A stretch of 64,000 nucleotides of DNA from Solen grandis. Taxonomy: Eukaryota > Mollusca > Bivalvia > Adapedonta > Solenidae. The stretch covers positions 26,542,154 through 26,606,153 of the forward strand of contig CM037783.1 of NCBI GenBank assembly GCA_021229015.1. Direction: 5' to 3'. Of the stretch, positions 13,459 through 63,658 are shown in pieces (within the stretch, counting starts at the first letter, position 1; every line of letters starts with the position of its first letter). The notes below the pieces were generated by a model. The model had not been told where the DNA came from. It searched no databases and was given only the letters and a program-made list of their open reading frames with translations. Position numbers and translations under genes: made by a program.

Positions 13459-13558
13459 NNNNNNNNNNNNNNNNNNNNNNNNNNNNNNNNNNNNNNNNNN
13501 NNNNNNNNNNNNNNNNNNNNNNNNNNNNNNNNNNNNNNNNNNNNNNNNNNNNNNNNNN
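13459..13558. other. Assembly gap (100 N)
   Basis: Exactly 100 N, the usual placeholder for a scaffold join of unknown size. Gene evidence indicates the wrong end of the following 50-kb piece has been placed here. Confidence 0.97.
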
Positions 13559-13561
13559 CAC

Positions 13562-13738
13562 GTTCACATATGGGAGGTTTAGAAGGTCTCCATTCCCAGT
13601 CTACGCGACACAGAAGTTCCTTTGGTCCCTTCATGATGTACCCAGGTAGGCACTCGAACACAGTACTCTCTCCCGGAAGTCGGTTGTCGTCGAGTTTCCG
13701 ACCATTTTTTGGATTTGGTATGTATGGGCATGGCATCA
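13562..13738 (-). CDS. CCP (sushi) domain exon, most 3' of the series
   Basis: Minus-strand exon after acceptor cttacacag. It reads MPCPYIPNPKNGRKL, then STVFECLPGYIMKG, then WEWRPSKPPIC, a complete CCP domain with four Cys and the closing Trp. It is 177 bases, the same as two other CCP exons here, phase 1 in and out. The donor starts gtg at 13561-13559 and is cut by the N gap; the first bases after the other gap (63659) are agg, giving gtgagg. Confidence 0.88.
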
Positions 13739-14281
13739 CTGTGTAAGAGTTTGTCAAGTTGATTGATAAATGTGCCTTTGAAGTAATTTTGAAAGTGCTC
13801 ATACACATATTACGACTGAATGTACTAATAAATGTTACTGGCCTGCACCATGACCAACCATAGTCAAATCGGTCTATATGGAGGTAACGAAGCACGTGCC
13901 ACCGGTAGTCCCTCGAAAAAAGTGAACAGATTTATAACTACATATATTAATATTAGTACTAGACTGAATTTGGTTTTTTTAATTTTTTAAAATTTTTGGA
14001 TATTTAATAAAGGCATCTTTATTTGATGCAGCCATTGTTTGATGGTACCTTTTGTAAATGGTTTATGTGTTTAATTGTACCTTTCTTTGATGGTGTATTT
14101 GACATCTATCTTAAATGGAGCCATTGTTTAATAGCACGGTTATTCGATGGTACCTATGATATCTTTTTTGAAGGTACCTGTGGTTGATAGAGCCATTGTT
14201 TGATGATACCTTTGTTAAATAATATCTTTGATGGTGTCTTTGGTTTGTGTTTATTAATGAAACTGGACGAAGCAAACTTAC

Positions 14282-14467
14282 GCTGACAGTCAAGAAGAGC
14301 CGTGGACCATTGTCCATTTTCGCATGTCCTCTTTAAGCTGGATCCCCTAAACAGTGCACCGGGCGAGCAACGGTATTCTACTGATTCTCCATGAGCAAAG
14401 TTTTCACGCTGTATGAACTTTCTCAGCAGATTTGCGTGTTCTACTGCTTCAGGCGGGTCACATGAGT
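14282..14467 (-). CDS. CCP (sushi) domain exon
   Basis: Acceptor attttgcag, donor gtaagt, read on the minus strand. The translation gives SCDPPEAVEHANLLRKF, then GESVEYRCSPGALFRG, then CENGQWSTALLDC: one CCP domain. 186 bases, phase 1 in and out. It joins the CCP exon at 13738 in frame. Upstream it fits equally well to the ADAMTS CCP exon at 43083 or to the signal-peptide-like exon at 18737, so gene membership is open. Confidence 0.88.
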
Positions 14468-14526
14468 CTGCAAAATTTTTAACAATGTGAACAGATAACA
14501 TTATGAAATCTACCCAGTAATCGACT

Positions 14527-15275
14527 TTTGCAAGCAGTAAAGAAACCACACCAGCCGGCGAGTGAACAGTATAGAACCACACCAGCCGGCGAGTGAACAG
14601 TAAAGAAACACACCAGCCGGCGAGTGAACAGTATAGAAACACACCAGCCGGCGAGTGAACAGTAAAGAAACACACCAGCCGGCGAGTGAACAGTAAAGAA
14701 ACACACCAGCCGGCGAGTGAACAGTATAGAACCACACCAGCCGGCGAGTGAACAGTAAAGAAACATACCAGCCGGCGAGTGAACAGTACAGAACTACACC
14801 AGCCGGCGAGTGAACAGTATAGAACCACACCAGCCGGCGAGTGAACAGTATAGAACCACACCAGCCGGCGAGTGAACAGTATAGAACCACACCAGCCGGC
14901 GAGTGAACAGTATAGAAACACACCAGCCGGCGAGTGAACAGTATAGAACCAAACCAATCGGCGAGTGAACAGTAAAGAAACACACCAACCGGCGAGTGAA
15001 CAGTATAGAACCACACAAGCCGGCGATTCAACAGTATAGAACCAAACCAACCGGCGAGTGAACGGTATAGAACCAAACCAATCGGCGAGTGAACAGTAAA
15101 GAAACACACCAGCCGGCGAGTGAACAGTATAGAACCAAACCAATCGGCGAGTGAACAGTAAAGAAACACACCAGCCGGCGAGTGAACAGTATAAAACCAC
15201 ACCAACCGGCGAGTGAACAGTATAAAACCACACCAGCCGGCGAGTGAACAGTATAGAACCAGACCAACCGGTGGC
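14527..15275. repeat. 31-bp minisatellite, about 24 copies
   Basis: Unit ccagccggcgagtgaacagt followed by ataga(a/c)ccaca, with regular variants (taaagaaa for tatagaac, aatcgg for gccggc). Period 31 is checked by successive agccggc positions 14553, 14584 and 14615. It lies in the intron just upstream (minus sense) of the CCP exon at 14467. Long open frames over it are an effect of the period not being divisible by three. Confidence 0.93.
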
Positions 15276-15956
15276 TGACTTGCATGTTGATCCGGTTTTA
15301 CACCGGTCGCGTCGCTACTTTCAGTTTCCTAGAGACGAGGTGGTAACACAGTTCAACCGTTCAGACGGAAAAAATTGATGTAAAATGATATAGGTCAAAG
15401 ATTAATACTGAAAGAGGATAAAGTCGACAAGTATCTGACGAAGAAAATGGTCATTGCATGCGTAAAGCCGGAATTACTCACTTAGCCGGATTTAATTGTT
15501 GGTCGAATTTCATAGCCAATCAGAGCGCTCCGTTAAGGCAATAGTTTGTGCAAGGTTATGAGTGGCGGGGCCTCTATAGACATGACTTTAGTACTTGAGA
15601 CCAACCCCGACCCTCGACTACCGCCTCTCTCAGTTAATTAACGATAAGGATTTAGCTGGACCCTCTCTGTTTCCAGGAAGGACTAGTGCTTGAGACAATT
15701 TGAGGATTTTCTTACTTAAAAATCGCGCCTCAAGTGATGGACTCATAAGGCTTGACTCCACAACAAGGCCAATATGACGAAATAGTTGAACCCCTACAAC
15801 TGCCCACCTATCTCCTATTTCAATTACTTAATGGATTGATAAGTAATGATCCCTTTGTAATATATTGACATCCTATGTAGAATTAACAATCCCCGTTTGA
15901 TGACATCATTGATTTTCTATCAAGACATATCTTAACGTCCGACGATTGTTCTCTTA

Positions 15957-16226
15957 AGAAATCCCGGTGATAACGTGAGCGGGAAGTCTTTGGTTTGATC
16001 CACGGTCGCGACATACCAAAATCATTAATATGTTACTGGTATATCTTCCTTATACTTGACAATTACCACATAAGGGTAGTTTTCCAGAAATGGATGGTTC
16101 AGTATCATTTTCAGGGTAGAGCGACTGGTGTGATCTCTTGCCACTTGTTACGGTGAGGTATCACTATAGCTCACTCATCAAGATGAATGAAATACTATCG
16201 GTGGAACGTAAAACCCAAGCAGACAA
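15957..16226 (+). mobile_element. tRNA-derived SINE, family A, copy 2
   Basis: The plus strand carries ggtttgatccacggtcgcga, then cataccaaaatcattaat, and ends gaaatactatcggtggaacg. This is the same order of blocks as the copy at 6943 on the other strand, but more diverged. Confidence 0.6.
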
Positions 16227-16494
16227 ACATTCACCGAAGGAAATTGTTCGTGGTGACTTTATTCATTTTATATAAATGGCGCGGGTCACATCGAAACCAT
16301 GTGTTGCTGCATGGAATAAAAAAACAACACTTACTTAGACACAATGTTACCCAAAATTCCAACGAGTTCATATAAACACAGTTGCAAAATGAAGTGTGCA
16401 CTCATATTTTCTTTCATTTGAATATGTTTTTATTTTTTCACAAATGTAAACAAATGCTGATTGTGTGCCCAAAAAGGAATTGTTAGCAATCCTA

Positions 16495-16970
16495 TGAAAA
16501 TAGGTGTCAAACGTTAAAGCTGCAACTAAAAAGTAAGGTGTCAAACATTAAAGCTGCAACTATAAAGAAGGTGTCAAAGTTAAAGCTGCAACTATAAAGA
16601 TAGGTGTCAAAACATTAAAGCTGCAACTAAAAAGTAAGGCGTTGAAGCTAAATCTGGAACTATAAAGACAGGTGAAAAAGATAAAGCTGCAACTATAAAG
16701 ATAGGTGTCAAAGCAAAAGCTGCAAGTATAAAAAAGGTGTCAAAGCTAAAACTGCAGCTTTAAAGGGGGTGTCAAAGCTAAAGCTGCAACCATAAATAAA
16801 GGTGTCAAAGCTAAAGCTTCGACTTCGACTATAACGATAGGTGTCAAACATTAAAGTTGCAAACATAAAGATAGGCGTTAAAGCTAAAGATGCAAAAATA
16901 AAGACGTGTCAAAAGTAACATAAAGGGAAAAACAATAAAGAAAGGCGTAAAACGTTAAAGCAGCAACTAC
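16495..16970. repeat. Degenerate ~33-bp minisatellite, about 14 copies
   Basis: Unit approximately aggtgtcaaagctaaagctg followed by caactataaagat, with indels and substitutions. No coding content. Confidence 0.8.
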
Positions 16971-17897
16971 AAGCGAAGCGGACAGCAAGCACGATAGTAT
17001 TTGTCTATTTGTCATTCAACGGTTCAACAAGGCGGCGAACAGGCGTTTATTCGTTATGTTTTCCCAACTACCCACCCTTGTTTTGTTTTGCAGTGCTTAA
17101 TTATGTCATTTCTTTTCAGTTGTGATGCGTTTGTTTCATCAGCCTCCATGTGTGATCTTGGATAGTGATGAATTAAGAGCGATTGGCACAGTGGTTCTGG
17201 GTATTTTTCTTACTATGAGGAAGTCTTCCCTGGTGGTTCATTGTTTCTGTTAGGACACTTTACCTGCCATTATATTACGGCCATTGTTGGGACCATGGCT
17301 GGTCTGGAAGTGTGCATTTTCATGTATAGTATTGATAAATTAAAGTCTCGTTGAAACCATTAGTTTGTCGTTCTTATTATTAAAGGCGTATGAACGGGTT
17401 TTTTTTCTAACGGACAAATTTTTCTAAAAAAATGCTCATAAGTACTTAAGACTTTAACTAAAAGATATAGGAATTAAAAATAGGGGGTCACCATTCTTGT
17501 TGTAGAGATCAAGCTTATGGTAGAGCATCACGTTTTGCTTGTTGAAAAAAAAAACATGGCGTTTAAAAATAAGAAATATTCCGATTCTAAATACTGTAAC
17601 AGTATATCAAAATGATATTTTTAAAATATTTTTTATAACCATTTGTAACTTATAATGTATTCTATAAGTTAAAGATAAAAAAATACTGTCAAGTATGCAT
17701 TGAAAATACAAAACGGGTACTAAATCTCATTTGTGCCCGGACCAAAATGTATACAAAAACTATCCCAAAACTGTGAATTTTTATATATATTTTTCTAAAT
17801 AAAAGAAAAATTTCAACGGACAGATTTCCTTTATATTTTCAGAGTCAGTCCTTTGATATAAATGCTTTCTGAAAATATAAAAAAAGACATACCTCAA

Positions 17898-17951
<54 letters not shown>

Positions 17952-18631
17952 TAAAACTGCCTTTTTTTATTGAAATTTTAGCCAAATTCGCATAAAAGCA
18001 CTAAAATGTGCTTTTTTATACCTTCAAAATTTGCCAAATATACTTTTAATGGTATTCTTAACACATGCATCTTAAAATTTGGGCTTTCTCCTATCATTCT
18101 ACTTAAAAATAATTGATCAGTTTAAAACAGCAAACTATACCAAGTATTACAGAACCCTGATAATGTAATGTTTTCTAATATATGGAAAGAAATTAAATAT
18201 CGGCTTGAATAAAACACACGGGTCGTCATTTTAGGTGTAAACTGAGATTTTAAAACAAAAACAAACATGTTGTCTTAACCACATCAACGAACAAATTAGT
18301 CAGTATTAAGAAATTTTGGTTTGAGTCCAATGTGTTGTCCATCTGATTAAAACGTTTGACTAAACATGACAATATGTCTCCCTGCGCCCTAACGGACTTT
18401 TGATGGTCAAAAATTGTTAAATTATTTTGATTTTTTATTTCAGGAGTGTTCGAATAGATTACTACCGGGATTTGGAATTTGAACAACAGGACCGTTAGAA
18501 ATGAAAAGCAATGTACACAAAACATTTTGGTGAATTTTACGTGGCGGCTTAATAAAAAAATGTAAGTAACCCCGCCTTCAGAAGATATCGTCGGATCTGA
18601 CAAACAAAGGAATACAAGTGATAAGACTTAC
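16971..18631. other. Intron or intergenic, nothing coding seen
   Basis: AT-rich sequence containing a run of about 47 T at 17902-17948. No exon was recognised on either strand. Confidence 0.5.
17902..17948. repeat. Poly(T) tract
   Basis: About 47 consecutive T; likely the tail of an old retrotransposed sequence on the minus strand or a slippage product. Confidence 0.9.
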
Positions 18632-18737
18632 TTTCAAGAACTTCTTCTTGACCAAAACAATCCGAAAAAATCAGCTGTAAAGTAATCACAAATACAATTT
18701 TGACTCTAAATGTCCCAACCATTGACTGTGTTGCCAT
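18632..18737 (-). CDS. Candidate first coding exon with signal peptide
   Basis: On the minus strand an ATG at 18737-18735 opens MATQSMVGTFRVKIVFVITL followed by QLIFSDCFGQEEVLE and a strong GTAAGT donor. The form is that of a secretory signal peptide: a short basic stretch, a hydrophobic core of about 12 residues and small residues before a Gln. 35 codons plus one base, phase 1, exactly what the next minus-strand exon (CCP at 14467) needs. It may start a separate secreted sushi-domain gene, downstream of the ADAMTS gene in the corrected orientation. No promoter was identified. Confidence 0.5.
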
Positions 18738-19778
18738 GTTGAGGCAAGAAAAGCAAAGTGAACTCGTGGGACCATGCTACAATATGATATAGGGTCTTGT
18801 GAAGTGGCTAACATTATTAATCGAGGACTTCCTATTTCACTTTCGTGTTCATAGAAACTTGATGCGATGTGAAAATATATCTGAGCTGGTGGTGCATTGG
18901 GATTTTGTAAAATGATATTTTTATAAGTAGTGAGTAAAGTAATAACTCCACTCATTGAAAGCAGTAAATAAATATGCCCACGAAATTAAAGCGAACTTCG
19001 CTACGAAAGCTCTTAGAAATGAGTAGCAATTTCCTGTACAGCTTAACGTGAGTGTGAAAGTAATGTATGTCCGTGTAATAACAACCTCTTTAATGAGAAA
19101 ATATAGAGACGCAGATGTATATATGTATGTATGTATGTATGTATGTGAGAATATTTCTGATATTTTATGTTATTTTAATCATGTCTTAAAGGCGTATGCT
19201 AGAGTTTCATAATTTTTTGGTCGGGAATAAAATTACCCTATATTCAATATTGTGTGTATCCAATGTATTGTTTAAAGAAAATGATATAAATGTTGGGAGT
19301 CAGCAACTTCGTTTACATTTAAATCCACATATGGTTACATGACTAATAACAGACATGGTGTTAAATCTCAAATGCAATGGCTCTAGAAATATATGTTACA
19401 ATTTCTATAAAGTGCTACATATAATAACAAAATCATGAAAAATTTGCATATAAAACATTGCTGTTCTTCAAAACACACTTAAAAATATTAAAATATCCAT
19501 CTACATGGTATCGAGTTGTTGTTGGAGGTGCTGCTAAATGATCGATATCCTGACACTACAGGCTGTAGTCGCATATTCATAATAATGTTTATGCAAATTC
19601 AAATAAAAATCTTGCCTTTACATGCAATTATAATAGATTATTTTCTCTCCAAATATAAAAAGAAAAATGGGATCAACTAATACACACGAATAACAGAAAT
19701 ACACTTTTCATGCATCGCTTCACATTTTATCCCGTAATTTACGGTGACATAGAGGTGACATGCACTACTCTTTTTTAT
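18738..19778. other. Intergenic or intronic, nothing coding seen
   Basis: AT-rich, includes a short (ATGT)n microsatellite near 19115-19146. If the exon at 18737 is a true gene start, its promoter and 5' UTR would be in this stretch; no clear signal was seen. Confidence 0.45.
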
Positions 19779-20172
19779 GTCGAGGGAACGAGATAATAAG
19801 TCGAGGGAACGAGTTAATTATCTCGAATGAACGAGATAATAAGTCGTGGGAACGAGTTAGTTATCTCGAAGGAACGACTTATTATCTCGAGGGAACGAGA
19901 TAATAAGTCGAGGGAACGAGATAATAAGTCAAGGAAACGAGTTAATTATCTCGAGGGAACGACTTGTTATCTCGAGGGAACGAGATAATAAGTCGAGGGA
20001 ACGAGTTAATTATAATAAATTGTTCCCTTGAGATAATGAAATCGTTGTCTCGACTTATTATCTCGTTCCCTCGAGATAATAAGCCGTTCCCTCGAGATAA
20101 TCAACTCGTTCCCTCGAGTTATTATCTCGTTCCCTCGACTTATTATCTCGTTCCCTCGAGTCGTTCCCTCGA
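19779..20172. repeat. 21-bp palindromic tandem repeat, inverted at its centre
   Basis: The first half (19779-20019) repeats gtcgagggaacgagataataa, mixed with flipped units. From about 20025 the units run mainly in the opposite sense (ttccctcgagataataa). The block therefore could fold into a long imperfect hairpin of about 200 bases per arm. Confidence 0.88.
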
Positions 20173-20483
20173 TTTTTTTTTCTTTTTTTGTGATTTTATT
20201 TTTGGCGAAATAAGGTAGGTATAGAGGAGCGAAGGTTGATCCTCACGTGTGTTTCTTACAAGATACTGTTAACTCTTATTTCAGATTTATTATTGATCAT
20301 AAATAATTGCTTCCATGTAAAATTGCTATTTTTTGACGTAATTCGAAATAAATAATGTATTGTGTTAAAATATCTGTTATGAAAAAAAATAAAAAATAAA
20401 AAAAAAAAATAAAAAAATAAACGGTGTAACGTGCGCTCAACTATAGCAAACATCTCTTATAATAACAATAATTATAGCTAGAT

Positions 20484-21536
20484 ATTTGTTTTCGTAGAAA
20501 ACTGATGTCCCCCACCCCCTTCCCCTCACAAACACATATACACTAAGGCACACAGTGACATATTCATATAATTTAAGTTAGAGGGCTGACTATATTGATA
20601 AAGCTCCGCTCAGAGTTATGGACCTTGTGTGTGAGACTTCCTCTCATCAATTTCTTTCAATAACTGAAATTTTGTTTTAATAGTATAAGTAGAACAAGAG
20701 TTATCTTGCGGTCAAGAAATTGTAAAAAGGAGGAATAACTCCAAACATACTGGCCTTAATATCTCATTAATTTCTTTCCATAAATGGAATTTAATTTCAA
20801 AAGCATGAGTCGAACAGGGGTTATCTTAAGGACACAAAATTGAATAAAAGCAGAAAAACTACAACATGAAACTTTGGAATTGGATTATGCTCTAGTGTAC
20901 TGCAATTATTGTCCATAATGTCTACCCACCTTCAAGGTTATGTCTCATAGTGCATGAGTTATGCTTAAAAAAAACAAGTATGAAATTGACCAAAGGGCAG
21001 TAACTCTAAAATAGTATGTGCAGAGTTACAGTTCTTGTGCATGGCACTTCTCCACAATAAGATCTATACACCTGTGAAGTTTAAAGTTAATAGCTATGAT
21101 ACTTTTGAAGTTAAGCTCTGGATGGAAATTAAGTATGAAATTTAACAAAGGGCAATCACTTAAATAATTGATGTGCAGAGTTACAGTTCTTGTGCATGAC
21201 ACTTCACCTGCATAAGATCTATTCACCGTGACGTTTCAAGTAAATAGTTTTGATACTTTTTGAGTTATGCTCCGGACAAAATTTAAGTTTGAAATTTAAC
21301 AAAGGGAATAACTCAAAAATATGATACGCAGAGTTACGGTTCTTGTGCACTGCACTTCTCCTCCATGAGATCTACCCACCTGTGAAGTTTCAGTTTAAAA
21401 GCTTTGATACTTTTTGAGTTATGCTCCGGACGAAAAGTGCGACAGACAGACGGACAGACGGACACACAACTCCGAAAAAAAACAATGTCTCCCCCATATA
21501 AATAGGGGGGGGGGGGGGGGGGGGGGGGGGGCATAA
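20484..21536 (+). repeat. ~1-kb dispersed repeat ending in a G run, copy 1
   Basis: It starts ttgttttcgtagaaaactga, followed by runs of C, and carries internal repeats of the form 'gcacttctcc...gatctacccacctgtgaagtttca...tttgagttatgctccggac'. It ends with acagacagacggacagacgg, then ctcccccatataaatagggg and a long G run (to 21531). A second copy with the same order and orientation starts at 27012. No coding capacity, so presumably non-autonomous. Confidence 0.75.
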
Positions 21537-22904
21537 TAAAAGTTGTAATATAATAAAATCATTTCATGTTTTCTTTTTATCAAATTAAAGTCTTAAAGTC
21601 TAACAACAACTTTGACACAACCTGCAAACAAAAAAATAGATACGGGAGAGTTCATGGTGGGTTATTTTGACATTCTCATGACCTGTATTTCACGTGATAC
21701 TTGGAGACCGTGAGGCGTTTCGTTGAAATTTTATCTAAGAGCATACTGAAGTGTTCTCTTGTAGAATTTAAGGAGAATATGGCATGTCAAGTGTACATGT
21801 GAAGGGCGGACTTATTATTCACACTCATGCAAGCACAAGTGTAGAGAACATGGCGGTGCTCAAGGACGTAACAGAGAAGATTTTTTCATCCAAAATACAT
21901 ATGACAATAAAATGAAGCAGGCAAAACATTATAATTAATATGCATACGGAATAGGCGGACATTGTTTATCATAATTTTTATGTTTTTATAACGTAATAAT
22001 TATTATACTTATACTACAATATGATACAACTATGACTTATTTAAAGTAAAAGACAAAATACATCACACTTTTACAGTGGTATGTTTATCTATAAAAGGTT
22101 ATCTCATTATATGATATGAGATAATATTTAGGGAGATTGAATGATTGATTGATTTTTTGGGTTTGTATTTTATACAGGAAAATATTAGACATTTCAAAAT
22201 ATACCCGTATGACAATGCATTTCAAATTTGATTTCTGCAATTTAATTTATTATATATTTATGTTCTGTACCAGTGGTAATCTTAAACCAATATTTAATTA
22301 TATTATAAATGCAATTGTAAGGTAAAATAATCCATTTTACCTCCTAACCTTGCAATAAACCTCATATGATAGACCCTGTCTCATTCTAAAGCATTTATTT
22401 TGTTTATCAAAATAATTTAAATTGTAATACCCTCGAATACTTCCTATTTAAAACTGACACAAAAGTATTTGCATTGAGTATATAAAGAAAACGGGCTCCG
22501 CCCCTTGAAGACAATGTTTTTCAATGGATCCAAATAATTGAACAATCTTCGTAGAGAGTGACCAGCGGAACATCTGTGCAAAAATATTTTTAAATCCAGG
22601 CAATACTTTTAGAGGAGAAGATTTTTGAAGTTGTCACATTATTTCCCCTTTTAGTTGCCATGGCAACCAGATTTTGGCATGGAATTTTTGAACAGTTTTG
22701 GAAGAGGACCATCCAAGGACATTCCTGTACAGTTTAATGAAGATTGGGCTAGTAGTTTAGGCGGAGATGTCGTTTACATTAAATGTTGACGACGGATGCT
22801 GGACGCCGGATATTCATATAGGTCACAATAGCTTTCCTTGAGCATGTTGTGCTCAGGTGAGATAATAATGTTAAATATTCCATGTCAATTTTACATAATA
22901 GATA
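21537..22904. other. Intergenic or intronic, nothing recognised
   Basis: AT-rich, no exon recognised on either strand. Part (22500-22860) resembles the 'gttatgctc..gg' type dispersed repeats only loosely. Confidence 0.4.
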
Positions 22905-23290
22905 TCACATGTCATACCGATACAATGTGTAATTTGTCGTGTCCGTGTTACAAATGTTGATACCACATATCCATATAATATATGTGATATGTTGTGTCAA
23001 TGTTACACACATAGATACCACATTTCATACCGACATAATGTGAAATATTTCGTGTCCATGTTATACACATAGATACCAAATGTCATACCGACATAATGTG
23101 TGATATTTCGTACCTACGTACCTAGATAAGACACAGTATTTGTTAGCATGACCACTTTATGATTGTATAATTCAAGTAACGAGGAATATGTTTATTCATG
23201 TTACGAAATAAAGAATTATCTTATCTTTAATACCAACTGTCATACCAACATTATGTGTGATATTTAGTGTCAGTATCACACAATTAGAAA
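22905..23290. repeat. Degenerate ~60-bp tandem repeat
   Basis: The pattern 'catgtcataccga.a.aatgtg..atatttcgtgtc.atgttacacacatagatacca' recurs about five times, with a non-repeat insertion around 23110-23225. Confidence 0.65.
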
Positions 23291-24279
23291 CCACAATGCT
23301 AATTCTCTGTGTTGGTTATTCTTTTGGTAAGAACAATTCCTCAAAATTCGTCAAACATATTCATTTCAAACTTGATATATTTGTTTACTATGAAAGGGGA
23401 ACTCATTTCAACCGGTCAAGTAATCCTAAAATTTATTTTGGAAGAGTTATATCCCTTTTTCAACTTAGAAATTCTGTTTTGCTTACCGATTTTTGTCATA
23501 ATTCTTCTTTGTCCAGATTTTTTGTCATACAGTTTTTTTTTTTTAATTTTTGAGTTTATGTTGTTGCCTCTACTGTTCAAGAAATGCACATATATCTCCA
23601 AAATTGCTATCTATCAGAATGTAACCCAAGATGATATAAGATACATTGATACATTGCGTGTATAACGAACTATGTGTAGAGAAGTATAGTTGCATACAAT
23701 CAAGAAATTACGAATGCAAAATTCGCAACGATTTGGACAAGGGTGTAAAGGAAAGTTTTTCAACTAATGATGTTCTTACAGTATGAGTCACACTACTTAA
23801 CATATGTGGAGATATTCTAATTAAGACAGACAAAAACAACAATTGCAAATCAATCCTTGAGGGACTGTTGGCAAAAAATTAGTTATTAGTTATATTTTAA
23901 TTGATTTCATTGTTAGATAGATTATACCAAATATATGCTTCTGGTCAGCTTTATGTAAAAAGAAAACATAAAATAATGTATATAAAAAGGATTTGAATAT
24001 AAAATAAAAGCGCTGAATTTTCAACATAATGAATAATGTATCGATAAGATTTTTTTCCTCAGATTCTTCAATATGTTCGAATCTAAAGTAATAGCAAATG
24101 TTTTTTTTCACTATAAACATTTTAGCAAATATTGTAAAAATGTAAGAGGGGTAAAGTAGAAAAATAAAAGGTTTAAATACAAGCAGCAATGCAATTTATT
24201 TGAAATCTAAAAAAAATTTGAGTTAAACGAAGAAAAATAGTATGGGTGAATGAAATAAAATGAATAAAACAAAATATGT

Positions 24280-25383: not shown

Positions 25384-25416
25384 TTTGTGTGTACATATTT
25401 TGATACTTTTAAGAAT

Positions 25417-32096: not shown

Positions 32097-32127
<31 letters not shown>

Positions 32128-44041: not shown

Positions 44042-44075
<34 letters not shown>

Positions 44076-51803: not shown

Positions 51804-51969
51804 CTTCCAGTAGCAGGAAAATAAATTTAAATCATGACTGAGGAAATGTATGCAAACACTAGTCACCTACCCGTAAAAAAAAACAACAAAAAATATGTAA
51901 ATCTCCCATGTATATATCATATCTTCCTTAAAATAAAATAAACTAGAACTGCAATTGTCATGGCGAAAA

Positions 51970-54358
51970 TACCCCCCGCATGCCGCTTTGTCACAGGAAT
52001 TTTTTAAATGACACAAATGGGGGTTACAGTTCTTTGGCACTGCACTTCTCTTCAATGAGATCTATCCACATATGAAGTTTCATATTAATCTTTATCCTTT
52101 TTGAGTTATGGTCCGGACAAAAATTAAGTATAAAAAATTACAAAGGGCAATAGCTCCAAAATTATGCAACAGAAAGTTATGGTTCTTGGGCACTGCACTC
52201 CCCCTCAATAAGATCTATCCCCTATGAAGTTTCATCTTAATACGTTTTATACTTTTTGAGTTATTGCCCGGACAAAATTTAAGTATGAAAATTTACAAAG
52301 GGCAATAACTCCAAAACTATACAACAGAGACTTATTGTTCTTGGGCGCTGCACATCCCCTCAATGAGATCTATCCACATATGAAGTTTCATCTTCAAAGC
52401 ATTTATACTTTTTGATTAACAGCCCAAACAAAAATTAAGTATTAACATTTACAAAGGGCAATAACTCCAAAATTACGTGAAAAGAGTTATGGTTTATGGT
52501 CACTGTACGCCCCCCTCAGTGAGATCTATCGACATATGAAGTTTCATCTTGATATCTTTAGTACTTTTTGAGTAACGGCCCGGACAAAATTTAAGTATGA
52601 AAATTTACAACGGACAATAACTCCAAAATTACGTGAAAAGAGTTATGGTTTATGGTCTATGTACGCCCCCCTAAGTGAGATCTATCGACATATGAAGTTT
52701 CATCTTGATATCTTTAGTACTTTTTGAGTAACGGCCCGGACAAAATTTAAGTATGAAAATTTACAACGGACAATAACTCCAAAATTACGCGACAGAGAGT
52801 TATGGTTCTTAGACACTGCACGCTCTATCAATGAGATCTATCTATATATGAAGTTTCCTCTTGATTTCTTTTATACTTTTTGAGTTACGGCCCAGACAAA
52901 ATTTAAGTATGAAAATTTACAAAGGGCAATAACTCCAAAACTATACAACAGAGACTTATTGTTCTTGGGCGCTGCACATCCCCTCAAGAGATTTTCTTCA
53001 AAGCTTTTATACTTTTTGATTAACAGCCCAAACAAAAATTAAGTATTAACATTTACAAAGGGCAATAACTCCAAAATTACGTGAAAAGAGTTATGGTTTA
53101 TGGTCACTGTACGCCCCCCTCAGTGAGATCTATCGACGTATGAAGTTTCATCTTGATATCTTTAGTACTTTTTGAGTATCGGCCCGGACAAAATTTAAGT
53201 ATGAAAATTTACAACGGACAATAACCAAAATTACACAGAGAGTTATGGTTCTTAGACACTGCACGCTCTATCAATGAGATCTATCTATATATGAAGTTTC
53301 CTCTTGATTTCTTTAGTACTTTTTGAGTAACGGCCCGGACAAAATTTAAGTATGAAAATTTACAACGGACAATAACTCCAAAATTACGCGACAGAGAGTT
53401 ATGGTTCTTAGACACTGCACGCTCTATCAATGAGATCTATCTATATATGAAGTTTCCTCTTGATTTCTTTTATACTTTTTGAGTTACGGCCCAGACAAAA
53501 TTTAAGTATGAAAATTTACAAAGGGCAATAACTCCAAAACTATACAACAGAGACTTATTGTTCTTGGGCGCTGCACATCCCCTCAATGAGATCTATCCAC
53601 ATATGAAGTTTCATCTTCAAAGCTTTTATACTTTTTGATTAACAGCCCAAACAAAAATTAAGTATGAAAATTTACAAAGGACAATAACTCCAACATTACG
53701 CGACAGAGAGTTATGGTTCTTGGTCACTGCACGCCCCCTCAATGAGATCTATCCTCTTATGATGTTTCATCTTGATGCCTTTTACTCTTTTTGAGTTAAG
53801 GCCCGGACAAAAATTAAGTATAAAAATTTACAAAGGACAATAACTCAAAATTACGCGACAGAGAGTTATGGTTCTTGATCACTGCACTCCCCCCAAATGA
53901 GATCTATCTACATATGATGTTTCATCTTGATGCCTTTTACTCTTTTTGAGTTAAGGACCGGACAAAAATTAAGTATGAAAAATTACAAAGGGCAATAACT
54001 CAAAAATTACGCGACAGAGAGTTATGGTTCTTCGTCACTGCACTTCCCCCAAATGAGATCTATCCACATATGAAGTTTCATCTTGATGCCTTTTATACTT
54101 TTTGAGTTACGGCCCGGACAAAAAATTAAGTATGAAAATTTACAAAGGGCAATAACTCAAAATTACGCGACAGAGAGTTATGGTTCTTGGTCACTGCAAT
54201 CCCCCCAAATGAGATCTATCCACATATGATGTTTCATCTTGATGCCTTTTATTCTTTTTGAGTTACAGCCCGGACAAAAAAACCGACGGCCGGACGGCCA
54301 GACAGACAAGCTGAATCCAGTATACCCCCTTACAACTTTATTGTACGGGGGGTATAAT
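51970..54358 (-). repeat. Block of about 14 tandem ~160-bp repeats with hairpin end
   Basis: The unit has 'tttacaaagggcaataactc', 'gagagttatggttcttggtc', 'actgcac..ccc', 'gagatctatccacatatgaa' and 'tttttgagttacggcccgga'. It ends with gacggccggacggccagaca, then tatacccccttacaa...ttgtacggggggtata (54320-54356), a hairpin. The family is related to that in the repeats at 20484 and 27012. Strand is arbitrary. It occupies most of the intron between the exons at 51803 and 54610. Confidence 0.82.
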
Positions 54359-54609
54359 TATATAATGATGCATGTAATTATCTAATAATGCAATCGTGGG
54401 AGGTTCGTCAGCAACCATGGGATCTAGAACTGCCACACAGAGGATGAGATACAAAATTCTTTTGTCTACAATTTCTCTCTTTGGTTTAGAGTTTGAAACA
54501 ACAACCTACATCTATGGAAAGAAAGTGTTCTTTTCTTAAGACCAATGTTGTTTTAAGATATGAGATCGACATACAAGTATATGAGTATTTAAGTTGAATA
54601 AAACATCAC

Positions 54610-54714
54610 CTTGGACCAGTTTCCATACTTCCACACCCCTAGGCAGGGCCTGTCGCCGCACTCCTCAGTGATGTTAGGCTTGTTGGTGTGGCTACAGTTT
54701 TCTGGCTTTATTGT
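54610..54714 (-). CDS. ADAMTS exon 13: end of third and start of fourth TSP1 repeat
   Basis: Acceptor tatccaccag, donor gtgatg, minus strand. Reads TIKPENCSHTNKPNITEECG, then DRPC (end of TSP1) and GVWKYGNWSK (start of the next). 105 bases, whole codons, phase 0 in and out. Both halves complete repeats in the adjoining exons. Confidence 0.9.
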
Positions 54715-55705
54715 CTGGTGGATACAAAATATATGAGTGCTGATACTCCAGGGAGGCCAGTTGCGGGGAAAACATGTTCGTACTATCTTATTAGCTCAGA
54801 AGCATCCAAGGAATAACCGACCTACAGCATGTCAGTTATAAGGTATCCCGATCATTCAAGCACATTGTTTTTTGAAACTATTTTGGGCTTCTGATGAAAA
54901 GAAACAGTGCCTTGTTTAAAGATTAAAGTAATGGAAAATGTAGAACGTTTATATGATGCCCGTACGAATCATTATCTGTAAAGCATTTTATCAAAGGAAG
55001 CAGGAAGTCAAATGTAGCATACATAAAATCTCTGTATTAAAGCGTACATCTCCACCGCATCTGGTGGAATTAAAACATTATAATAGAGTGCACCGTATTT
55101 CAGCCATACGGAGACAGTGAAACAGACTATAAGTAACTGCAGGTATTTATAAAGAGAAGTGTTGTGATAAAATAACTACAATTGTATTGTTGTTTGTTAA
55201 ATTTAATGTCCCACCGACAGTATTTCAATCGTTTGGAGGTTATGTTTACTTGAGACAGATGTAGTTCTGCAACACTGCAGTATCATACCGTAAACATGTA
55301 GCATGATACCACACCAAGTCACATTATCCTGACACCAGGTCAACCAGTCCTTGAACTATCCATATCTGCTGAGCGGCAAGCAAGTACCATTTTTACGACT
55401 TTGGTATGTCGCGACAAGGAATAGAACCCACGACATCAAGCTCCCGACTAACTACTCGGCAACCGAGGACTGTAAAGTACGTTTATAAAAAAAAAAACAC
55501 CAAAAAAAAAAAACGTATTTCAGTCACCTCAACAAACAATATATAATGGTGCCTAACATTTTTTCTGTGCGTATCTACCAATCAAAATCTTTAAAATACT
55601 CATTCGTCACTGTCGCACATCCTTATCTCTAAGTAGGAAAAATGTGGGGTTAGACAGCTGCGTCCAAAAAAGTTGATACGCGATGTGAATATAGTAAAAA
55701 CGTAC
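54715..55705. other. Intron containing a SINE
   Basis: Apart from the SINE at 55205-55472, no repeat or exon was recognised; a poly(A)-like stretch lies at about 55488-55512. Confidence 0.5.
55205..55472 (-). mobile_element. tRNA-derived SINE, family A, copy 4
   Basis: Minus strand begins gtcctcggttgccgagtagt, then gtgggttctattccttgtcg (B-box type), cgacataccaaagtcgtaaa, and ends gaaatactgtcggtgggaca. Same structure as the copy at 6943. Confidence 0.78.
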
Positions 55706-55805
55706 CGTATACAAGCCCTCGTATTTATACGCGCATGAAACGTTTCGAGTTTTTGTTCCATTCCCACAAGATGCTGAACAATCACCCCACGCCCCTGTTA
55801 ACCAC
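55706..55805 (-). CDS. ADAMTS exon 12: third TSP1 repeat, first half
   Basis: Acceptor gttttgtag, donor gtacgt, minus strand. Reads WLTGAWGDCSASCGNGTKTR, then NVSCAYKYEGLYT: a clear TSP1 start (W...W..CS.SCG.G...R.V.C). 100 bases, takes one base to finish a Gln codon with the preceding exon, phase 0 out. Confidence 0.92.
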
Positions 55806-55859
55806 CTACAAAACAAAACAAAAACGTTTCCATCCTTATATTAGCGCATCATGTCTATT

Positions 55860-58376
55860 GAGTATACCATAACTGACATTAGTATACCATAACGGATATT
55901 AGTATACCATAACTGACGTTAGTATACCATAAGTGACATTAATATACCATAACTGACATGAGTATACCATAACTGACGTGAGTATACCATAACTGACATA
56001 AGTATACCATAACTGACATGAGTTTACCATAACTGACGTGAGTATACCATAACTGACGTGAGTATACCATAACTGACGTGAGTATACCATAACTGACATG
56101 AGTATACCATAACTGACATGAGTATACCATAACTGACATGAGTATACCATAACTGACATTAGTATACCATAACTGACATGCGTATACCATAACTGACATA
56201 AGTATACCATAACTGACATGAGTATACCATAACTGACTTAAGTATACCATAACTGCCATGAGTATACCATAACTGACATGAGTATACCATAACTGACATG
56301 AGTATATCATAACTGACGTGAGTATACCATAACTGACGTGAGTATACCATAACTGACATGAGTATAACATTACTGACATTAGTATACCATAACTGACATT
56401 AGTATACCATAACTGACGTGAGTAAACCATAACTGATATGAGTATACCATAACTGACATTAGTATACCATAACTGACATGAGTATACCATAACTGACGTG
56501 AGTATAACATAACTGACATTAGTATACCATAACTGATATGCGTATACCATAACTGACGTGAGTATACCATAACTGACATTAGGTTACCATAACTGACGTG
56601 AGTATACCATAACTGACATTTGCATACCATAACTGACATGAGTAAACCATAACTGACATTAGTATACCATAACTGACATGAGTATACCATAACTGACATG
56701 AGTATACCATAACTGACGTGAGTATACCATAACTGACGTGAGTATACCGTAACTGACGTGAGTATACCATAACTAACATAAGTATACCATAACTGACATG
56801 AGTATACCATAACTGACATGAGTATACCATAACTGATATGCGTTTAGCATAACTGACGTGAGTATACCATAACTGACATGAGTATACAATAACTGACTTA
56901 GTATACAATAACTGACGTGAGTATACCATAACTGACATGAGTATACCATAACTGACATAAGTATACCATAACTGACATTAGTATACCATAACTGACGTGA
57001 GTATACCATAACTGATATGAGTATACCATAACTGATATTAGTATACCATAACTGACATTAGTATACCATAACTGACATGCATATACCATAACTGACGTGA
57101 GTATACCATAACTGACATGAGTATACCATAACTGACATGAGTATACCATAACTGACATAAGTATACCATAACTGACATTAGTATACCATAACTGACATGA
57201 GTATACCATAACTGATATGCGTTTAGCATAACTGCCGTGAGTATACCATAACTGACATGAGTATACAATAACTGACTTAGTATACAATAACTGACGTGAG
57301 TATACCATAACTGACATGAGTATACCATAACTGACGTGAGTATACCATAAGTGACATAAGTATACCATAACTGACGTGAGTATACCATAACTGACATGAG
57401 TATACCATAACTGACGTGAGTATTCCATAACTGACATAAGTATACCATAACTGACATTAGTATACAATAACTGACATTAGTATACAATAACTGACATTAG
57501 TATACAATAACTGACATTAGTATACAATAACTGACATTAGTATACAATAACTGACATTAGTATACCATAACTGACGTGAGTATACCATAACTGACGTGAG
57601 TATACCATAACTGACATGAGTATACCATAACTGACATGAATATACCATAACTGACGTTAGTATACCATAACTGACATGAGTATACCATAACTGACATTAG
57701 TATACCATAACTGATATGCGTTTAGCATAACTGACGTGAGTATACCATAACTGACATGAGTATACAATAACTGACTTAGTATACAATAACTGACGTGAGT
57801 ATACCATAAATGACATGAGTATACCATAACTGAGGTGAGTATACCATAACTGACATGCGTATACCATAACTGACGTGAGTATACCATAACTGACATAAGT
57901 ATACCATAACTGACATGAGTATACCATAACTGACATGAGTATACCATAACTGACGTGAGTATACCATAACTGACATTAGTATACCATAACTGACATGAGT
58001 ATACCATAACTGACATTAGTATACCATAACTGACGTGAGTATACCATAACTAACAAGAGTATACCATAACTGACGTGAGTATACCATAACTGACATTAGT
58101 ATACCATAACTGACGTGAGTATACCATAACTGACATTAGTATACCATAACTGACATTAGTATACCATAACTGACATGAGTATACCATAACTGACATTAGT
58201 ATACCATAACTGACATGAGTATACCATAACTGACATGAGTATACCATAACTTACATAAGTATACCATAACTGACATTAGTATACCATAACTGACATAAGT
58301 ATACCATAACTGGCATGAGTATACCATAACTGACATAAGTATACCATAACTGACGTGAGTATACCATAATTGACAT
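55860..58376. repeat. 20-bp satellite array, about 125 copies
   Basis: Unit agtataccataactgacatg with variants at the last three positions (atg, gtg, att, ata) and occasional deletions. 2.5 kb long, in the intron between exons at 59188 and 55805. Longer-range copies of variant order are visible (for example the 'gatatgcgtttagcataactg' version at about 56836, 57217 and 57713). All minus frames are free of stops because 20 is not divisible by three. Confidence 0.96.
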
Positions 58377-58664
58377 ATAGATGCATTTTTGAACCACACA
58401 GCAAATGGCATGCAGTATTATTGATTCATTAATATTTAATATTCCACATCTAATGAAAATGTAAGTTTTTTGTTTATCAATACATGCAGTTAATTTACCT
58501 TTATCCATTGACATTTATAAACAAATTACTTGCCACAGGCTGTTACATAGAAAATGAATGTGGAGTTTGGAAAAGATATAGCTAACGTCATTATTTATTT
58601 TTATTTGATAACATTGTTCAAAACACGTACAAGGTTTGCTAATTTCATAAAAGTGTAAAGTGTA

Positions 58665-59000
58665 CAGGAGCAAGTATTAGGATGCTATCTTGTAATCTTC
58701 ATACACGTGCAAGGTACTGCGATACTATCTTGAAAACTTGATACACGTGCAAGGTGTTAGGATGCTATTTTGAAAACTTAATTAGCGTGGACGGTTTTAG
58801 GATGCTTTCTTGAAATCTTAATACACATGCACGGTGTTAGGATGCTTTCTTGAAATCTTAATACACATGCACGGTGTTAGGATGCTTTCTTGAAATCTTA
58901 TTACACATGCACGGTGTTAGGATGCTATCTTGAAATCTTAATACACATGCACGGTGTTAGGATGCTATCTTGAAACCTTGCTACACGCTGAAGCTTAAGG
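58665..59000. repeat. 40-bp minisatellite, about 8 copies
   Basis: Unit acacatgcacggtgttagga followed by tgct(t/a)tcttgaaatcttaat, degenerate at both ends. Confidence 0.85.
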
Positions 59001-59187
59001 GTGCTACTTTTAAACTTTGCTACAAATGTAGGATCAATATTTTCTAGGCAGGACGAGACGAAAATGCATGTGTGATAAACTTATGTCAATCAAGTTAAAA
59101 GATATAATTGGAAGGATCTCGCACCGAAAATGGTTTGATGGTAATTTCAGTAACTGTTTGAAATACGATAAAATTGGAAATACTTAC

Positions 59188-59308
59188 TGCGGGGGACAAA
59201 AAAAGTCGTTGCAAACAATCGCTTCTTTTGGCCTCTTTTTAATGTCACAAAGGTAATCTTCAACAACTACTGAGGAATTTACACACTTCACGACCCTTTC
59301 TATGTGAC
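59188..59308 (-). CDS. ADAMTS exon 11: second TSP1 repeat, second half
   Basis: Acceptor cctatttacag, donor gtaagt, minus strand. Reads HIERVVKCVNSSVVVEDYLC, then KRPKEAIVCNDFFCPP, the C-terminal half of TSP1 (R.V.C......D..C....P.....CN...CP). It needs the CSASCGKG start found only at the exon at 63558-63465; the join gives Gly in phase 1. 121 bases, leaves two bases for the next exon. Confidence 0.92.
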
Positions 59309-59473
59309 CTGTAAATAGGTAGCTTACTGCTTCACTACAATCTTCTCTAAAGTTGTGTAAAGTAGTAGTGTAAGACTTAAAATAACAGGGGCACATTTTT
59401 GTGGAGGCCACATTTGTGTGGAGGTCAATATCTGGGACGTTCCGAGCGCGACGGCACACGATATGTCGATGGA

Positions 59474-59874
59474 AACGCCCGAGGTTGATTCGTCGCTATT
59501 CGGAAAAATGAGCAGGTAAAGTCGGAGCGATGGAGCTTTATCGATATAAGCCAAATTTGATACTACAGGATTAACTTTAAGCTAAAACGAAATAAAATGC
59601 GTTATTGCTCCGACTTTATTAATAGTCGCGGAACGTAGAATTACAAGACTGTACTTCGCTATGTCTGCACTGAAACTGAAAGCACACATTATCGGGTAAT
59701 GCAATGGATAGTTTGTCAGCAACAATGATTTGTAGGGAAAAAAAGTCTCGATGCATCGGATATAAATAATATATAGTCGGAGCAATAACGCATTTGGCTT
59801 ATATCGATAACGCTCTGTCGCTCCGACTTAACTTGTTCACTTTTCCGAAAAGCGACGAATCAACCTCGGGCGTT
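59474..59874. mobile_element. ~400-bp element with long terminal inverted repeats
   Basis: The left arm begins aacgcccgaggttgattcgt and includes gtcggagcgatggagctttatcgatataagccaaat; the right arm is its reverse complement with few changes, ending cctcgggcgtt at 59874. Arms are about 85 bases. No coding sequence, so a foldback/MITE-type element. It lies about 165 bases upstream (minus sense) of the TSP1 exon at 59308, in the intron. Confidence 0.75.
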
Positions 59875-60200
59875 CTACACTACTACTGCATGTGTAAGCA
59901 GATAAAGGACAAAGTAAAACATGAATCATTATTTTATTTAGTCAAGCATGCATACATAGAACACGCAACTGCTATTTGAAATTCTATCTTTAACTAGACA
60001 ACAAAATGATTTGATTTTATTAAGCTTAACACATTACTTCAACAGACACCCATTTTATGTTGAGACCAAACATTTTCAAATATACGCGCTGTTTCTGACT
60101 TGCGTTCGTTTTACATTCGTTTTATTTTGCTTTTAAGGTATGACCCACCTAATTCTCCATATTTTTAATAAACCTAAAATGACGATATAATCATATTTGA

Positions 60201-60430
60201 ATGATCTCCGTGGCCGAGATGGTAAAGTCGCTGACTTTAATACTCACTCAGCCCCTCACCGCGTGGGTTCGAATCCCGGCAGGGTCATTCGGATTTTCAT
60301 GTGAGGAAGCCTTCCAGCTGACTTGCGGTAGGTCGGTGGTTCTACCCGGATGCCTCCGTGCATTCAGAGTCTTCCTCCACCTGTAATTAGCTGGACGTCG
60401 CTATATGACTCAAATAGTCATGTCAAGTCA
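60201..60430 (+). mobile_element. tRNA-derived SINE, family B, with tRNA-like head
   Basis: Begins atgatctccgtggccgagat (A-box region) and has gtgggttcgaatcccggcag (B box), then cttccagctgacttgcggta, and ends in gtcatgtcaagtcaatt. A related copy without the head is at 32450. The sequence between the boxes does not make a proper tRNA fold, so it is called SINE and not a tRNA gene. Confidence 0.8.
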
Positions 60431-60779
60431 ATTAATTCAGTCTACGAATACACTGACGAGAAGCAATACATGGAATGCATTGGACCACGAAGGCTCTTAA
60501 AACGTGCAAAGCCACATTGTGATTCTTTAAGCAACACGATCGACCCCGACCAGCCATTGGCATCACCGGCAACAGTGGTCGATACTCGTCTCACCACGCA
60601 AAAATAACTTAAACCGAATGACCTTAGATAACCATACACGGGACAAGTGTCGACGAAATGTGTCACGCTCACCAGCCAACCAATCTAATCAGCATTTGGC
60701 GATGCCAACCGATGACGAGTCTGCTTAAAATAACTAGGAAGACGGTCAAGGTCCACGTGATACTACCCATTCATATTTC

Positions 60780-62150
60780 AATCTCAGTGTATTATCGTGG
60801 AACATTGCTGGGTTAGCAAAATATTCAGACAATACCGAAATTATATATTTTCTCTAAACTTTTAACATTATAAGTATTTGTGAAACTTGGAGCGATAGAA
60901 GTGTAGAATTCAATAATTATTTGAAAATTTAACCTGTTATGATTCTGTGAGACAACGTCGGTATAGCAGTATACGTTAGTAATTGGTAACAATCTTAAAA
61001 AATAATGTCGCCTATTTGTGTAGATTTTAAGGATTTTGTAGTGCTATTATTCTCATTATCTAAGTTGTTTAATATGAAAGATATTATGTATTTCACATGT
61101 GTGTCACCAGAATGATCTACTATTTTCGAAAATTGTAACGAATAAAATAGTATACTGAAAATACAAAATGACTTAGAAGAAATACAGCAAATATATCAAG
61201 ACACTTTACTATTTCTTACTATTTCTGGCAGGTGATTTTAATAGTATTCGGATTTTGTTTATAGCTAAGTTGATTACGAAACCTCATCATTTGATATTCC
61301 GAGACATAACTGAGATATAATAGGAGGTAACAATTTTTGCAAGACACTTGTAAATATGTTTTGTGTATATGATATTCATTTGTTAAATAGGAGCTTTGAC
61401 ACCGATAAAAAATGAGAATGTTCATGTTTTGCGAATGATGGAACCAGTGTCGTAGATTATATGATTGCTTCCACTGAACTCTTTGATTGCATAAATATTT
61501 CCATTGTTTAGAACGAGATGAATCCGACCATTTCCCGATTTCATGCCAATTTAAATATTGTATAAGAAAGTACCACATAATATATCTAATCTTGAAAACA
61601 AAAATAGTAATATCCACTTATTAGAACGATTCAAATGGCGTGGAATCAAACGACAAACGTTTCAGTCAAAAATTTATAAAAATATTGCATGAAAAAAGAA
61701 AAATAAATATAACAGATGTAATTTCGTATGATATTAATGGAGCTATTGACCTTATAACAACTCTTTACTATTGTCTGGAAAAACAATGGAAGTGAACATG
61801 AATATTACATATGACGTACAGCCACCATGGGACGCTAAATCAGAAGATTAGAAATAACGACTAATACGTTTCAGGATTACTAGCTCTAACGACGACCTTC
61901 GTAATTATAAAGAGAAATAAAATGATTTAAAAGAACATGCAAAACTAAGATATATACATATTAGGAAATGAAAGAGAATAACTCTTTAGTAATCAAAACG
62001 ATCCCAAGACAGTCTGGTCAATGATAAAACGATGTAATCAGTGGTACAAAAATAGTTATAAAGAGTTTACTGTTTGTATGTTGGTTTTCGAAAAGCATTC
62101 GATAATATCACCAGTTATTTAAATGTTTGAAAAAAGGGTATACATCGTCG
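60780..62150 (+). mobile_element. Decayed LINE: endonuclease and start of reverse transcriptase
   Basis: The plus strand gives LSVLSWNIAGLAKYSDN, ICETWSDRSVEF, LAGDFNSIRI (61223-61252), ANDGTSVVDYMIASTEL and, one frame over, ERDESDHFPISC, in the order of an APE-type LINE endonuclease. Farther on are weak pieces such as KTVWSMIKRCNQ and VCMLVFEKHSI. Many stops and frameshifts; inactive. Confidence 0.72.
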
Positions 62151-63107
62151 CATTAGGTGAATGTGGACGACTCCCACTTAATAAATTGTAGAAGATACTG
62201 GTGAACCTTAATACAGATGCCACCGCACAAATTTCCCCGTAATTGTTATCTTATGTTAAAGTCACTTGATAATGTTAATAGATCTTGCTGGGAAAATAAA
62301 ATTTGTTTTATTTAAGTATGGATTTGGTTATGTATGGATTTCACAAGATGTCGGTAATAAAAAATTATTTGTTTCTCATTTTAAGCAACGGATTAAAAAT
62401 TCAAATGCTTACTATGTCAAAGGACTTTCGCTACTTAAAGAAATGTGTGGGCAAAGAATTATGTATTTATGCACAACTACATATGCAAGTATATTGGGTA
62501 TATGTGTAACAAATCCCTGTTGTATAGAGGAGTTGCGTTCATATATGATCAAGGACCATCACTCTAAAAACAAATGGGTGAGTATGAAATGCTGACTTCA
62601 TGAAGACGAGTGCAATTGATAAATTTGAACCCATTTAAACTTGTAGTGCAAGAGGTTTTGTGTTCACAATGTTCTTACATAACTCTATAGAAGAAAAAGT
62701 GACAAAGGGCCATACATTTCATGTGAGCACAGAATCATATTTCAATCACATATAACTACATATAAAGTTGAGTATTGTGATTAATTTTGAACCAAAATCC
62801 TCAGTAATGTAAGAGGGGTTGTGCTCACAAGACTCTGCTTCATAACTGAATATAGGGAAAATGACAAAGGACCACTATTATTTTAAGTTTTATGTGAACA
62901 CGCACTCCAGTCTTCATGCACAACTACATATATAGGTAATTTTTGTGGGTAAGTTTGAACCAAACCACTCTGATAGTTTTTGAGGAGATGCGATTAAAGG
63001 GTTTTGCTAGCGGACAGACAGACAAACCCGTGGACGACTTGGGATATAACATAATACAGACCTTCTGGCGTATAATAACACCAATACATACCCAAATGCT
63101 GCTTAAA
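62151..63107. other. Intron, weak dispersed-repeat similarity
   Basis: Two or three diverged copies of a segment with 'gttgtgctcacaag' and 'acaaagg.cca' and 'acaactacatata.a' (62580-62980), ending in agcggacagacagacaaacc. No exon was found. Confidence 0.45.
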
Positions 63108-63235
63108 TTACGAGATAATGCGAAACAGCACGGTAATAATTACGAGATAATGCGAGACAGCACGGTAATAATTACGAGATAATGCGAAACAGCACGGTAA
63201 TAATTACGAGATAATGCGAAACAGCACGGTAATCC
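63108..63235. repeat. 32-bp tandem repeat, 4 copies
   Basis: Unit attacgagataatgcgaaac followed by agcacggtaata. Confidence 0.9.
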
Positions 63236-63464
63236 GCATTTCACCTTTAATCAGTTAAAACATTAAGCTGCCTTCGTAATCTGAATAAATTCCGCTGACA
63301 CATCTTATATAAACGCACGCTGTTTCTATAGTTACCAAGTCATGATGCTATTAAGGCAAGCCGCTTTAAATGATAGGCTTTAGAGCAGATGTACTGCCAG
63401 TTAGAACAGATATTGTACATATTTAAAGCCAAGCATCAGCGATGTGTTCACTTCATGCGGTTAC

Positions 63465-63558
63465 CTTTGCCACACGAGGCGCTACAGGAGCTGGGGTTGC
63501 TGGTGGCCCACGTGTACACACCTATATCGTTCTTTGGAACATAAAACTCGTAGTCAAC
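63465..63558 (-). CDS. ADAMTS exon 10, 3' part: spacer end and second TSP1 start
   Basis: The minus strand starts directly at the N gap: VDYEFYVPKNDIGVYTWATS, then NPSSCSASCGK and a gtaacc donor, phase 1. YEF.vP is the conserved end of the ADAMTS spacer and W....CSaSCGkG the start of a TSP1 repeat. There is no acceptor; the exon is entered from the gap in frame 0, the frame in which the + strand exon at 13414-13458 leaves it. Confidence 0.9.
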
Positions 63559-63658
63559 NNNNNNNNNNNNNNNNNNNNNNNNNNNNNNNNNNNNNNNNNN
63601 NNNNNNNNNNNNNNNNNNNNNNNNNNNNNNNNNNNNNNNNNNNNNNNNNNNNNNNNNN
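63559..63658. other. Assembly gap (100 N)
   Basis: Second gap of exactly 100 N; the piece between the two gaps is exactly 50,000 bases. Confidence 0.97.

What the first reader, a model, noticed from the sequence alone, without database searches (positions are those of the whole stretch)
13459..63658. The 50-kb piece between the two N gaps is inverted in this assembly
Seen: ADAMTS exons run on the + strand up to 13458, then the rest of the same protein (spacer end, TSP1 repeats, ShKT, CCP) runs on the - strand from 63558 down to 13562. Reverse-complementing 13559-63558 makes the gene continuous, with every exon phase matching. Inference: a scaffolding error, since both breakpoints lie inside gene signals that are restored by flipping. 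Gene models made on this assembly would be two unrelated-looking fragments.
Basis: partly seen in the sequence, partly recalled or inferred. Interest (0 to 1): 0.93.

Follow-up and report, generated by a model that had tools for sequence, protein, structure and literature searches.

The report
Misassembled 50-kb block splits ADAMTS gene
A block of exactly 50,000 bases was put back the wrong way round when this animal genome was assembled, cutting a protease gene in two; the inversion is a scaffolding mistake, not biology, and its exact length hints at how it was made.

Summary
Confirmed: the piece between the two 100-N gaps (13559-63558) is inverted in this assembly. Flipping it restores one ADAMTS exon across gap 1 with no base lost, and a 12-exon model then has matching phases at all 11 introns. 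Independent proof comes from the same assembly. Two paralogs, one about 83 kb upstream (84% over 322 bp) and one on C1 (81% over 402 bp), align straight through junction 1 in flipped form; with the unflipped join the alignments end 20 and 11 bases before the break. The upstream paralog's gap-free contig matches the left piece (16 of 16 matches +) and then the inverted piece reversed (16 of 17 matches -). Mechanism: the piece is exactly 50,000 bp, as are its three left neighbours, and the right-hand contig is 14,602 bp. So, by inference, one contig of about 214.6 kb was cut on a 50-kb grid and one bin was reinserted reversed; published recipes cut contigs this way before LACHESIS (PMC6701489, PMC8298618). 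Junction 2 is inferred: nothing independent spans it. Species and software are not identified. No novel biology; the by-product is a length fingerprint for finding such errors.

The parts
13459..13558 (.). 100-N gap 1 (C7:26555612-26555711), inside ADAMTS spacer exon 3
63559..63658 (.). 100-N gap 2 (C7:26605712-26605811), just after the CCP4 exon once flipped
13559..63558 (-). piece C: exactly 50,000 bp, inverted in this assembly (C7:26555712-26605711)
1..13458 (+). end of piece B (whole piece C7:26505612-26555611, exactly 50,000 bp), same orientation as the tandem paralog in piece A
63659..64000 (+). start of piece D (C7:26605812-26620413, 14,602 bp, read as the remainder of the grid)
2952..3119 (+). 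probable disintegrin-like/cysteine-rich exon of the same gene (weak: E 0.045; a similar exon lies at A 7202-7342)
   Evidence: B 39494-39661
5175..5336 (+). central TSP1 exon region of the same gene
10995..11118 (+). end of cysteine-rich domain / spacer start exon
13065..13228 (+). spacer exon 2
13414..13458 (+). 5' part of spacer exon 3, cut by gap 1
63465..63558 (-). 3' part of the same exon 3 (spacer end, TSP1-1 start); joins 13458 without loss of a base
59188..59308 (-). TSP1-1 end exon
55706..55805 (-). TSP1-2 start exon
54610..54714 (-). TSP1-2 end / TSP1-3 start exon
51665..51803 (-). TSP1-3 exon
50936..51055 (-). ShKT-like exon (cysteine pattern named by eye; no Pfam match)
49309..49485 (-). 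CCP/sushi exon 1
42907..43083 (-). CCP/sushi exon 2
14282..14467 (-). CCP/sushi exon 3
13562..13738 (-). CCP/sushi exon 4; its donor (or run to stop) would be completed by 63659 onward

Best explanation
One contig (Z-A-B-C-D, 214,602 bp if these five pieces are its whole) was cut into exact 50,000-bp bins before or during scaffolding, probably as a Hi-C check for contig errors. The bins Z, A, B, C and the 14,602-bp remainder D were rejoined with 100-N gaps in place of the original continuous sequence, and bin C was put in backwards. The cut at the B/C boundary fell inside exon 3 of an ADAMTS gene, so the gene's 3' half now lies on the wrong strand. SHOWN: C is inverted relative to B; the lengths are exact; no base is lost at junction 1. 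INFERRED: the order C-then-D at junction 2, the single parent contig, and the Hi-C/LACHESIS type of recipe.
For: Seamless in-frame exon at junction 1 when flipped and consistent phases over 12 exons. Paralogous DNA on C7 (piece A) and C1 runs unbroken across junction 1 in flipped form (322 bp 84%; 402 bp 81%); with the unflipped join the alignments are 85 and 147 bp and end 20 and 11 bases before the break. Contig A, free of gaps, matches B 16 of 16 on + (14 in order), C 16 of 17 on - (those 16 in order) and D 7 of 7 on + (matches of at least 200 bp and 70%); A 16621 pairs with B 49980 and A 16639 with C 50000, the last base of C. Z, A, B and C are each exactly 50,000 bp between 100-N gaps, and D is 14,602 bp. 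The recipe is in print for other animals: scaffolds split into segments of 50 kb on average, then LACHESIS (PMC6701489, passage); raw contigs split into segments of 50 Kb, LACHESIS (PMC9605442, passages); contigs broken into 50 kb fragments, LACHESIS (PMC8298618, passages). Mytilus coruscus (PMC8063583, passages and section 9): LACHESIS, gaps preset at 100 Ns, and 4 of 15 contig-N50 entries are exact multiples of 100,000.
Against: No reads, Hi-C map or transcript could be examined. The species and its assembly paper are not identified, so the recipe is inferred; the M. coruscus main text has no '50 kb', so its round N50 values are suggestive only. Junction 2 has nothing independent across it. 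Copy 1 in contig A shows no CCP3/CCP4 in the rest of A or in B 1-14430, so other joins in this run may be wrong too. 51 of 54 grid probes held no gap; the 30 on the right were laid out from D's start and missed because D ends after 14.6 kb, and the left run ends at Z.
Confidence: 0.9

Rival explanations
1. A scaffolding error as above, but made by another Hi-C tool or by manual editing that cuts on a 50-kb bin, not by pre-splitting plus LACHESIS. This differs from the best explanation in the tool only; the 0.9 given there covers the bin-cut inversion whichever tool made it.
For: YaHS, for one, breaks contigs and scores four orientations per join, and inversions were among the errors counted in its, SALSA2's and pin_hic's output (PMC9848053, part 1 of 2 read).
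Against: Four bins in a row plus a short remainder look like wholesale splitting of a contig, not a targeted cut.
Confidence: 0.2
2. Real inversion (fixed or polymorphic) in the sequenced animal.
For: Gene halves on opposite strands are what a true inversion would leave.
Against: Both ends are N gaps, the length is exactly 50,000, three neighbours have the same length, the exon is restored to the base, and two paralogs show the uninverted form.
Confidence: 0.02
3. The 3' half on the minus strand belongs to another ADAMTS paralog of the array, so no gene is broken.
For: There are at least three tandem copies here and related exons on C1 and C534.
Against: The two halves meet to the base in one exon, as in the A and C1 paralogs, and a genome search with exons 2-3 listed six matches, two each here, in A and on C1, with no other continuation (only the best candidates are scored).
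Confidence: 0.03

Closest known systems
Orientation errors of Hi-C scaffolding after contig splitting (LACHESIS with 50-kb pre-splitting)
   Same: Exact 50-kb pieces, 100-N gaps, short remainder, one piece reversed
   Different: This assembly's own recipe is not known; order at junction 2 is inferred
ADAMTS metalloproteases with C-terminal TSP1 repeats
   Same: HEIGH exon, cysteine-rich end, spacer, TSP1 repeats
   Different: C-terminal ShKT-like and four CCP/sushi exons. Of the 111 different proteins listed by the two ADAMTS searches (78, 35, two shared), by eye none lists both PF00084 (sushi) and a TSP1 or ADAMTS profile; both searches are limited by length and shared words

Membership tests
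Scaffolding (orientation) error | Inverted piece bounded by assembly gaps on both sides | tested here: met
Scaffolding (orientation) error | Flipping restores continuity supported by independent copies | tested here: met
   junction 1:
Scaffolding (orientation) error | Same restoration at the second edge | tested here: inconclusive
   donor GTG|AGG or run to TAA restored, but nothing independent spans it
Scaffolding (orientation) error | Reads or Hi-C contacts contradict the present order | not testable with these tools
   no read data held
50-kb pre-split artefact | Pieces of exactly 50,000 bp in a run | tested here: met
   Z, A, B, C
50-kb pre-split artefact | Shorter remainder piece at one end | tested here: met
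   D 14,602 bp
50-kb pre-split artefact | The assembly's own methods describe it | not tested
   species not identified
ADAMTS | HExxH zinc-binding exon of an M12B domain | tested here: met
   ...TLSHEIGHL in A 4871, B 29988, D 14117; outside the window; third zinc ligand not checked
ADAMTS | Cysteine-rich domain PF19236 | tested here: met
   exon ORF alone 25.9 bits, cut-off 21; 19.3, under the cut-off, in the joined protein
ADAMTS | Spacer PF05986 | tested here: inconclusive
   22.8 bits against 23.6
ADAMTS | TSP1 repeats PF19030 | tested here: met
   3 stretches, 99.9 bits

The most novel reading that the evidence does not exclude
Assemblies made by splitting contigs into 50-kb bins carry a detectable fingerprint (runs of contigs of exactly n x 50,000 bp plus a remainder). 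In them many genes may be broken by misoriented bins, and a simple scan of contig lengths could find and correct these genome-wide, in this assembly and in published molluscan ones such as Mytilus coruscus.
Probability: 0.55. Interest if true: 0.4.

Novelty: not a real feature. Interest (0 to 1): 0.22.

Why it matters
The inversion would otherwise be read as a structural rearrangement and as two separate genes. If the grid explanation holds, suspect joins in such an assembly can be listed from contig lengths alone, before it is used for synteny, inversion calling or gene-family counts.

Tried and rejected
Junction 2 by paralog: blastn of the flipped join against the fetched pieces, and a genome-wide DNA search with 220 bases around it (2 matches, neither crossing), gave nothing across it; the CCP3/CCP4 relative on C534 stops matching within the CCP4 exon. 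An ortholog with an intact C-terminus: two protein searches returned distant ADAMTS-like, TSP1 or sushi proteins only, 25-40% identity (the second scored residues 190-530 of its query, so not the CCP exons). Species: a retroelement search (168 matches, 120 listed) gave mostly unnamed proteins, with Haliotis and Thiodiazotropha-MAG names among the few named, so a mollusc is likely but not shown. The COX1 family search hit one place, a bacterial-type cbb3 oxidase, not a mitochondrial gene. The assembly (1,324,486,009 bases, 811 sequences) fits none of three mollusc papers looked at: razor clam PMC7358530 (passages, 1,332,277,427 bp, 7,932 scaffolds), M. coruscus PMC8063583 (1,423,058,668 bp anchored), Corbicula fluminea PMC8298618 (1.52 Gb). 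Anadara broughtonii used 300-bp fragments (PMC6615981, passage). Zebra mussel PMC9210306 (passages) used Proximo and says nothing of 50-kb bins in the passages seen. One literature search for this kind of error (six terms together) gave 0 papers; that is no proof that it is not in print. Rfam at gathering scores: 0 matches.

Full report
What is in the sequence. The window holds two gaps of 100 N, at 13459-13558 and 63559-63658, and exactly 50,000 bases between them. On the + strand up to 13458 lie exons of an ADAMTS gene; on the - strand from 63558 down to 13562 lie exons of the rest: spacer end, three TSP1 repeats, a ShKT-like exon and four CCP/sushi exons. Pfam supports TSP1_ADAMTS (3 stretches) and Sushi (4 stretches); the spacer profile is just under its cut-off (22.8 against 23.6), but its match runs through the junction to its last position. 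The ShKT name is by eye. That the gene is an ADAMTS and not an ADAMTS-like protein is suggested by an exon ...TLSHEIGHL at B 29988-30104, 6.4 kb left of the window.

Flipping. With the middle piece reversed, exon 3 reads ...SSRQPT|VDYEFYVPKNDIGVYTW... in frame with no base missing; unflipped, that frame meets a stop seven residues on. A 12-exon model then has AG/GT sites and compatible phases at all 11 introns. I chose the sites with the protein family in mind, so the phases are supporting evidence and not an independent test.

Independent test. The genome search placed the window at C7:26542154-26606153 of an assembly of 1,324,486,009 bases in 811 sequences. The protein of exons 2-3 gave six matches: two here, two in a second copy on C7 (26471751-26472245, +, about 83 kb upstream) and two on C1 (-) (the last C1 match reads through an intron and shows two stops, but exon 3 itself is open). 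Aligned as DNA, the flipped exon with flanks runs unbroken for 402 bp at 81% in the C1 copy and 322 bp at 84% in the C7 copy, while with the unflipped join the alignments are 147 and 85 bp and end 11 and 20 bases before the break. The gap-free contig that holds the C7 copy (piece A) matches piece B (16 of 16 on the same strand, 14 of them in order) and then the middle piece C reversed (16 of 17, those 16 in order), and 7 of 7 matches to the next piece D are again on the same strand. Matches under 200 bp or under 70% identity were dropped before these counts. So C alone is out of register.

How such a thing arises. The Sitobion miscanthi paper (passage) describes splitting scaffolds into segments of 50 kb on average, Hi-C mapping, LACHESIS, and manual checks of segments whose links disagree with the raw scaffold; an Apis mellifera carnica paper has the same step (passages). 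The Corbicula fluminea paper (passages) broke contigs into 50 kb fragments before LACHESIS. The Mytilus coruscus paper (passages and section 9) states 'Gaps are preset at 100 Ns' and lists contig N50 values of which 4 of 15 are exact multiples of 100,000 (3,700,000; 2,900,000; 1,000,000; 1,700,000); its main text does not mention 50 kb. I infer the same kind of recipe here. Other tools also break contigs and choose an orientation (YaHS, part 1 of 2 read).

Limits. Junction 2 restores either a donor GTG|AGG in the phase of the other CCP exons or a short run to TAA, with an AATAAA at D 140, but nothing independent crosses it. Copy 1 in piece A seems to lack CCP3/CCP4, so the A|B join is not proven either. 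No reads or Hi-C data were available. The species is unknown; a few named hits point to a mollusc.

Verdict. The finding is an assembly artefact of a known kind, with an unusually clear likely cause.

Noticed in passing
C7 pieces A, B-C, D (window and about 137 kb to its left, 14 kb to its right): Tandem array of at least three head-to-tail ADAMTS copies: one in A (found as far as CCP2), one in B plus flipped C, and the start of one with its HEIGH exon in D (B 14497-20216 and D 55-5745 are 94% identical); related exons on C1 and C534.
   Followed up: partly
window 49309-49485 and piece A 25040-25216: CCP1 exon is 176 of 177 nucleotides identical between copies 1 and 2, with a nearly identical stretch of upstream intron, while the wider region is about 75-82%: looks like recent gene conversion.
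   Followed up: partly
C7:26505512-26505611 (A|B join): Copy 1 shows no CCP3/CCP4 exons in the rest of A or in B 1-14430, so either it is shorter or this join is also wrong.
   Followed up: partly
L099 (C4:7025412-7026737 and flanks): Open bacterial-type frames for ccoN, ccoO (cbb3 oxidase) and carA inside a chromosome-scale sequence: bacterial contamination scaffolded in, or an insertion.
   Followed up: partly
14510-15328 and 55899-58514: Two long repeat arrays with open frames on the - strand; the first repeats in 31-bp steps.
   Followed up: no
44878-45768 and 29751-30512, - strand: Retroelement-type (reverse transcriptase) frames; the first has its best relatives at 60-66% identity, mostly unnamed; the second was judged by eye.
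   Followed up: partly
[not shown]
   Followed up: no
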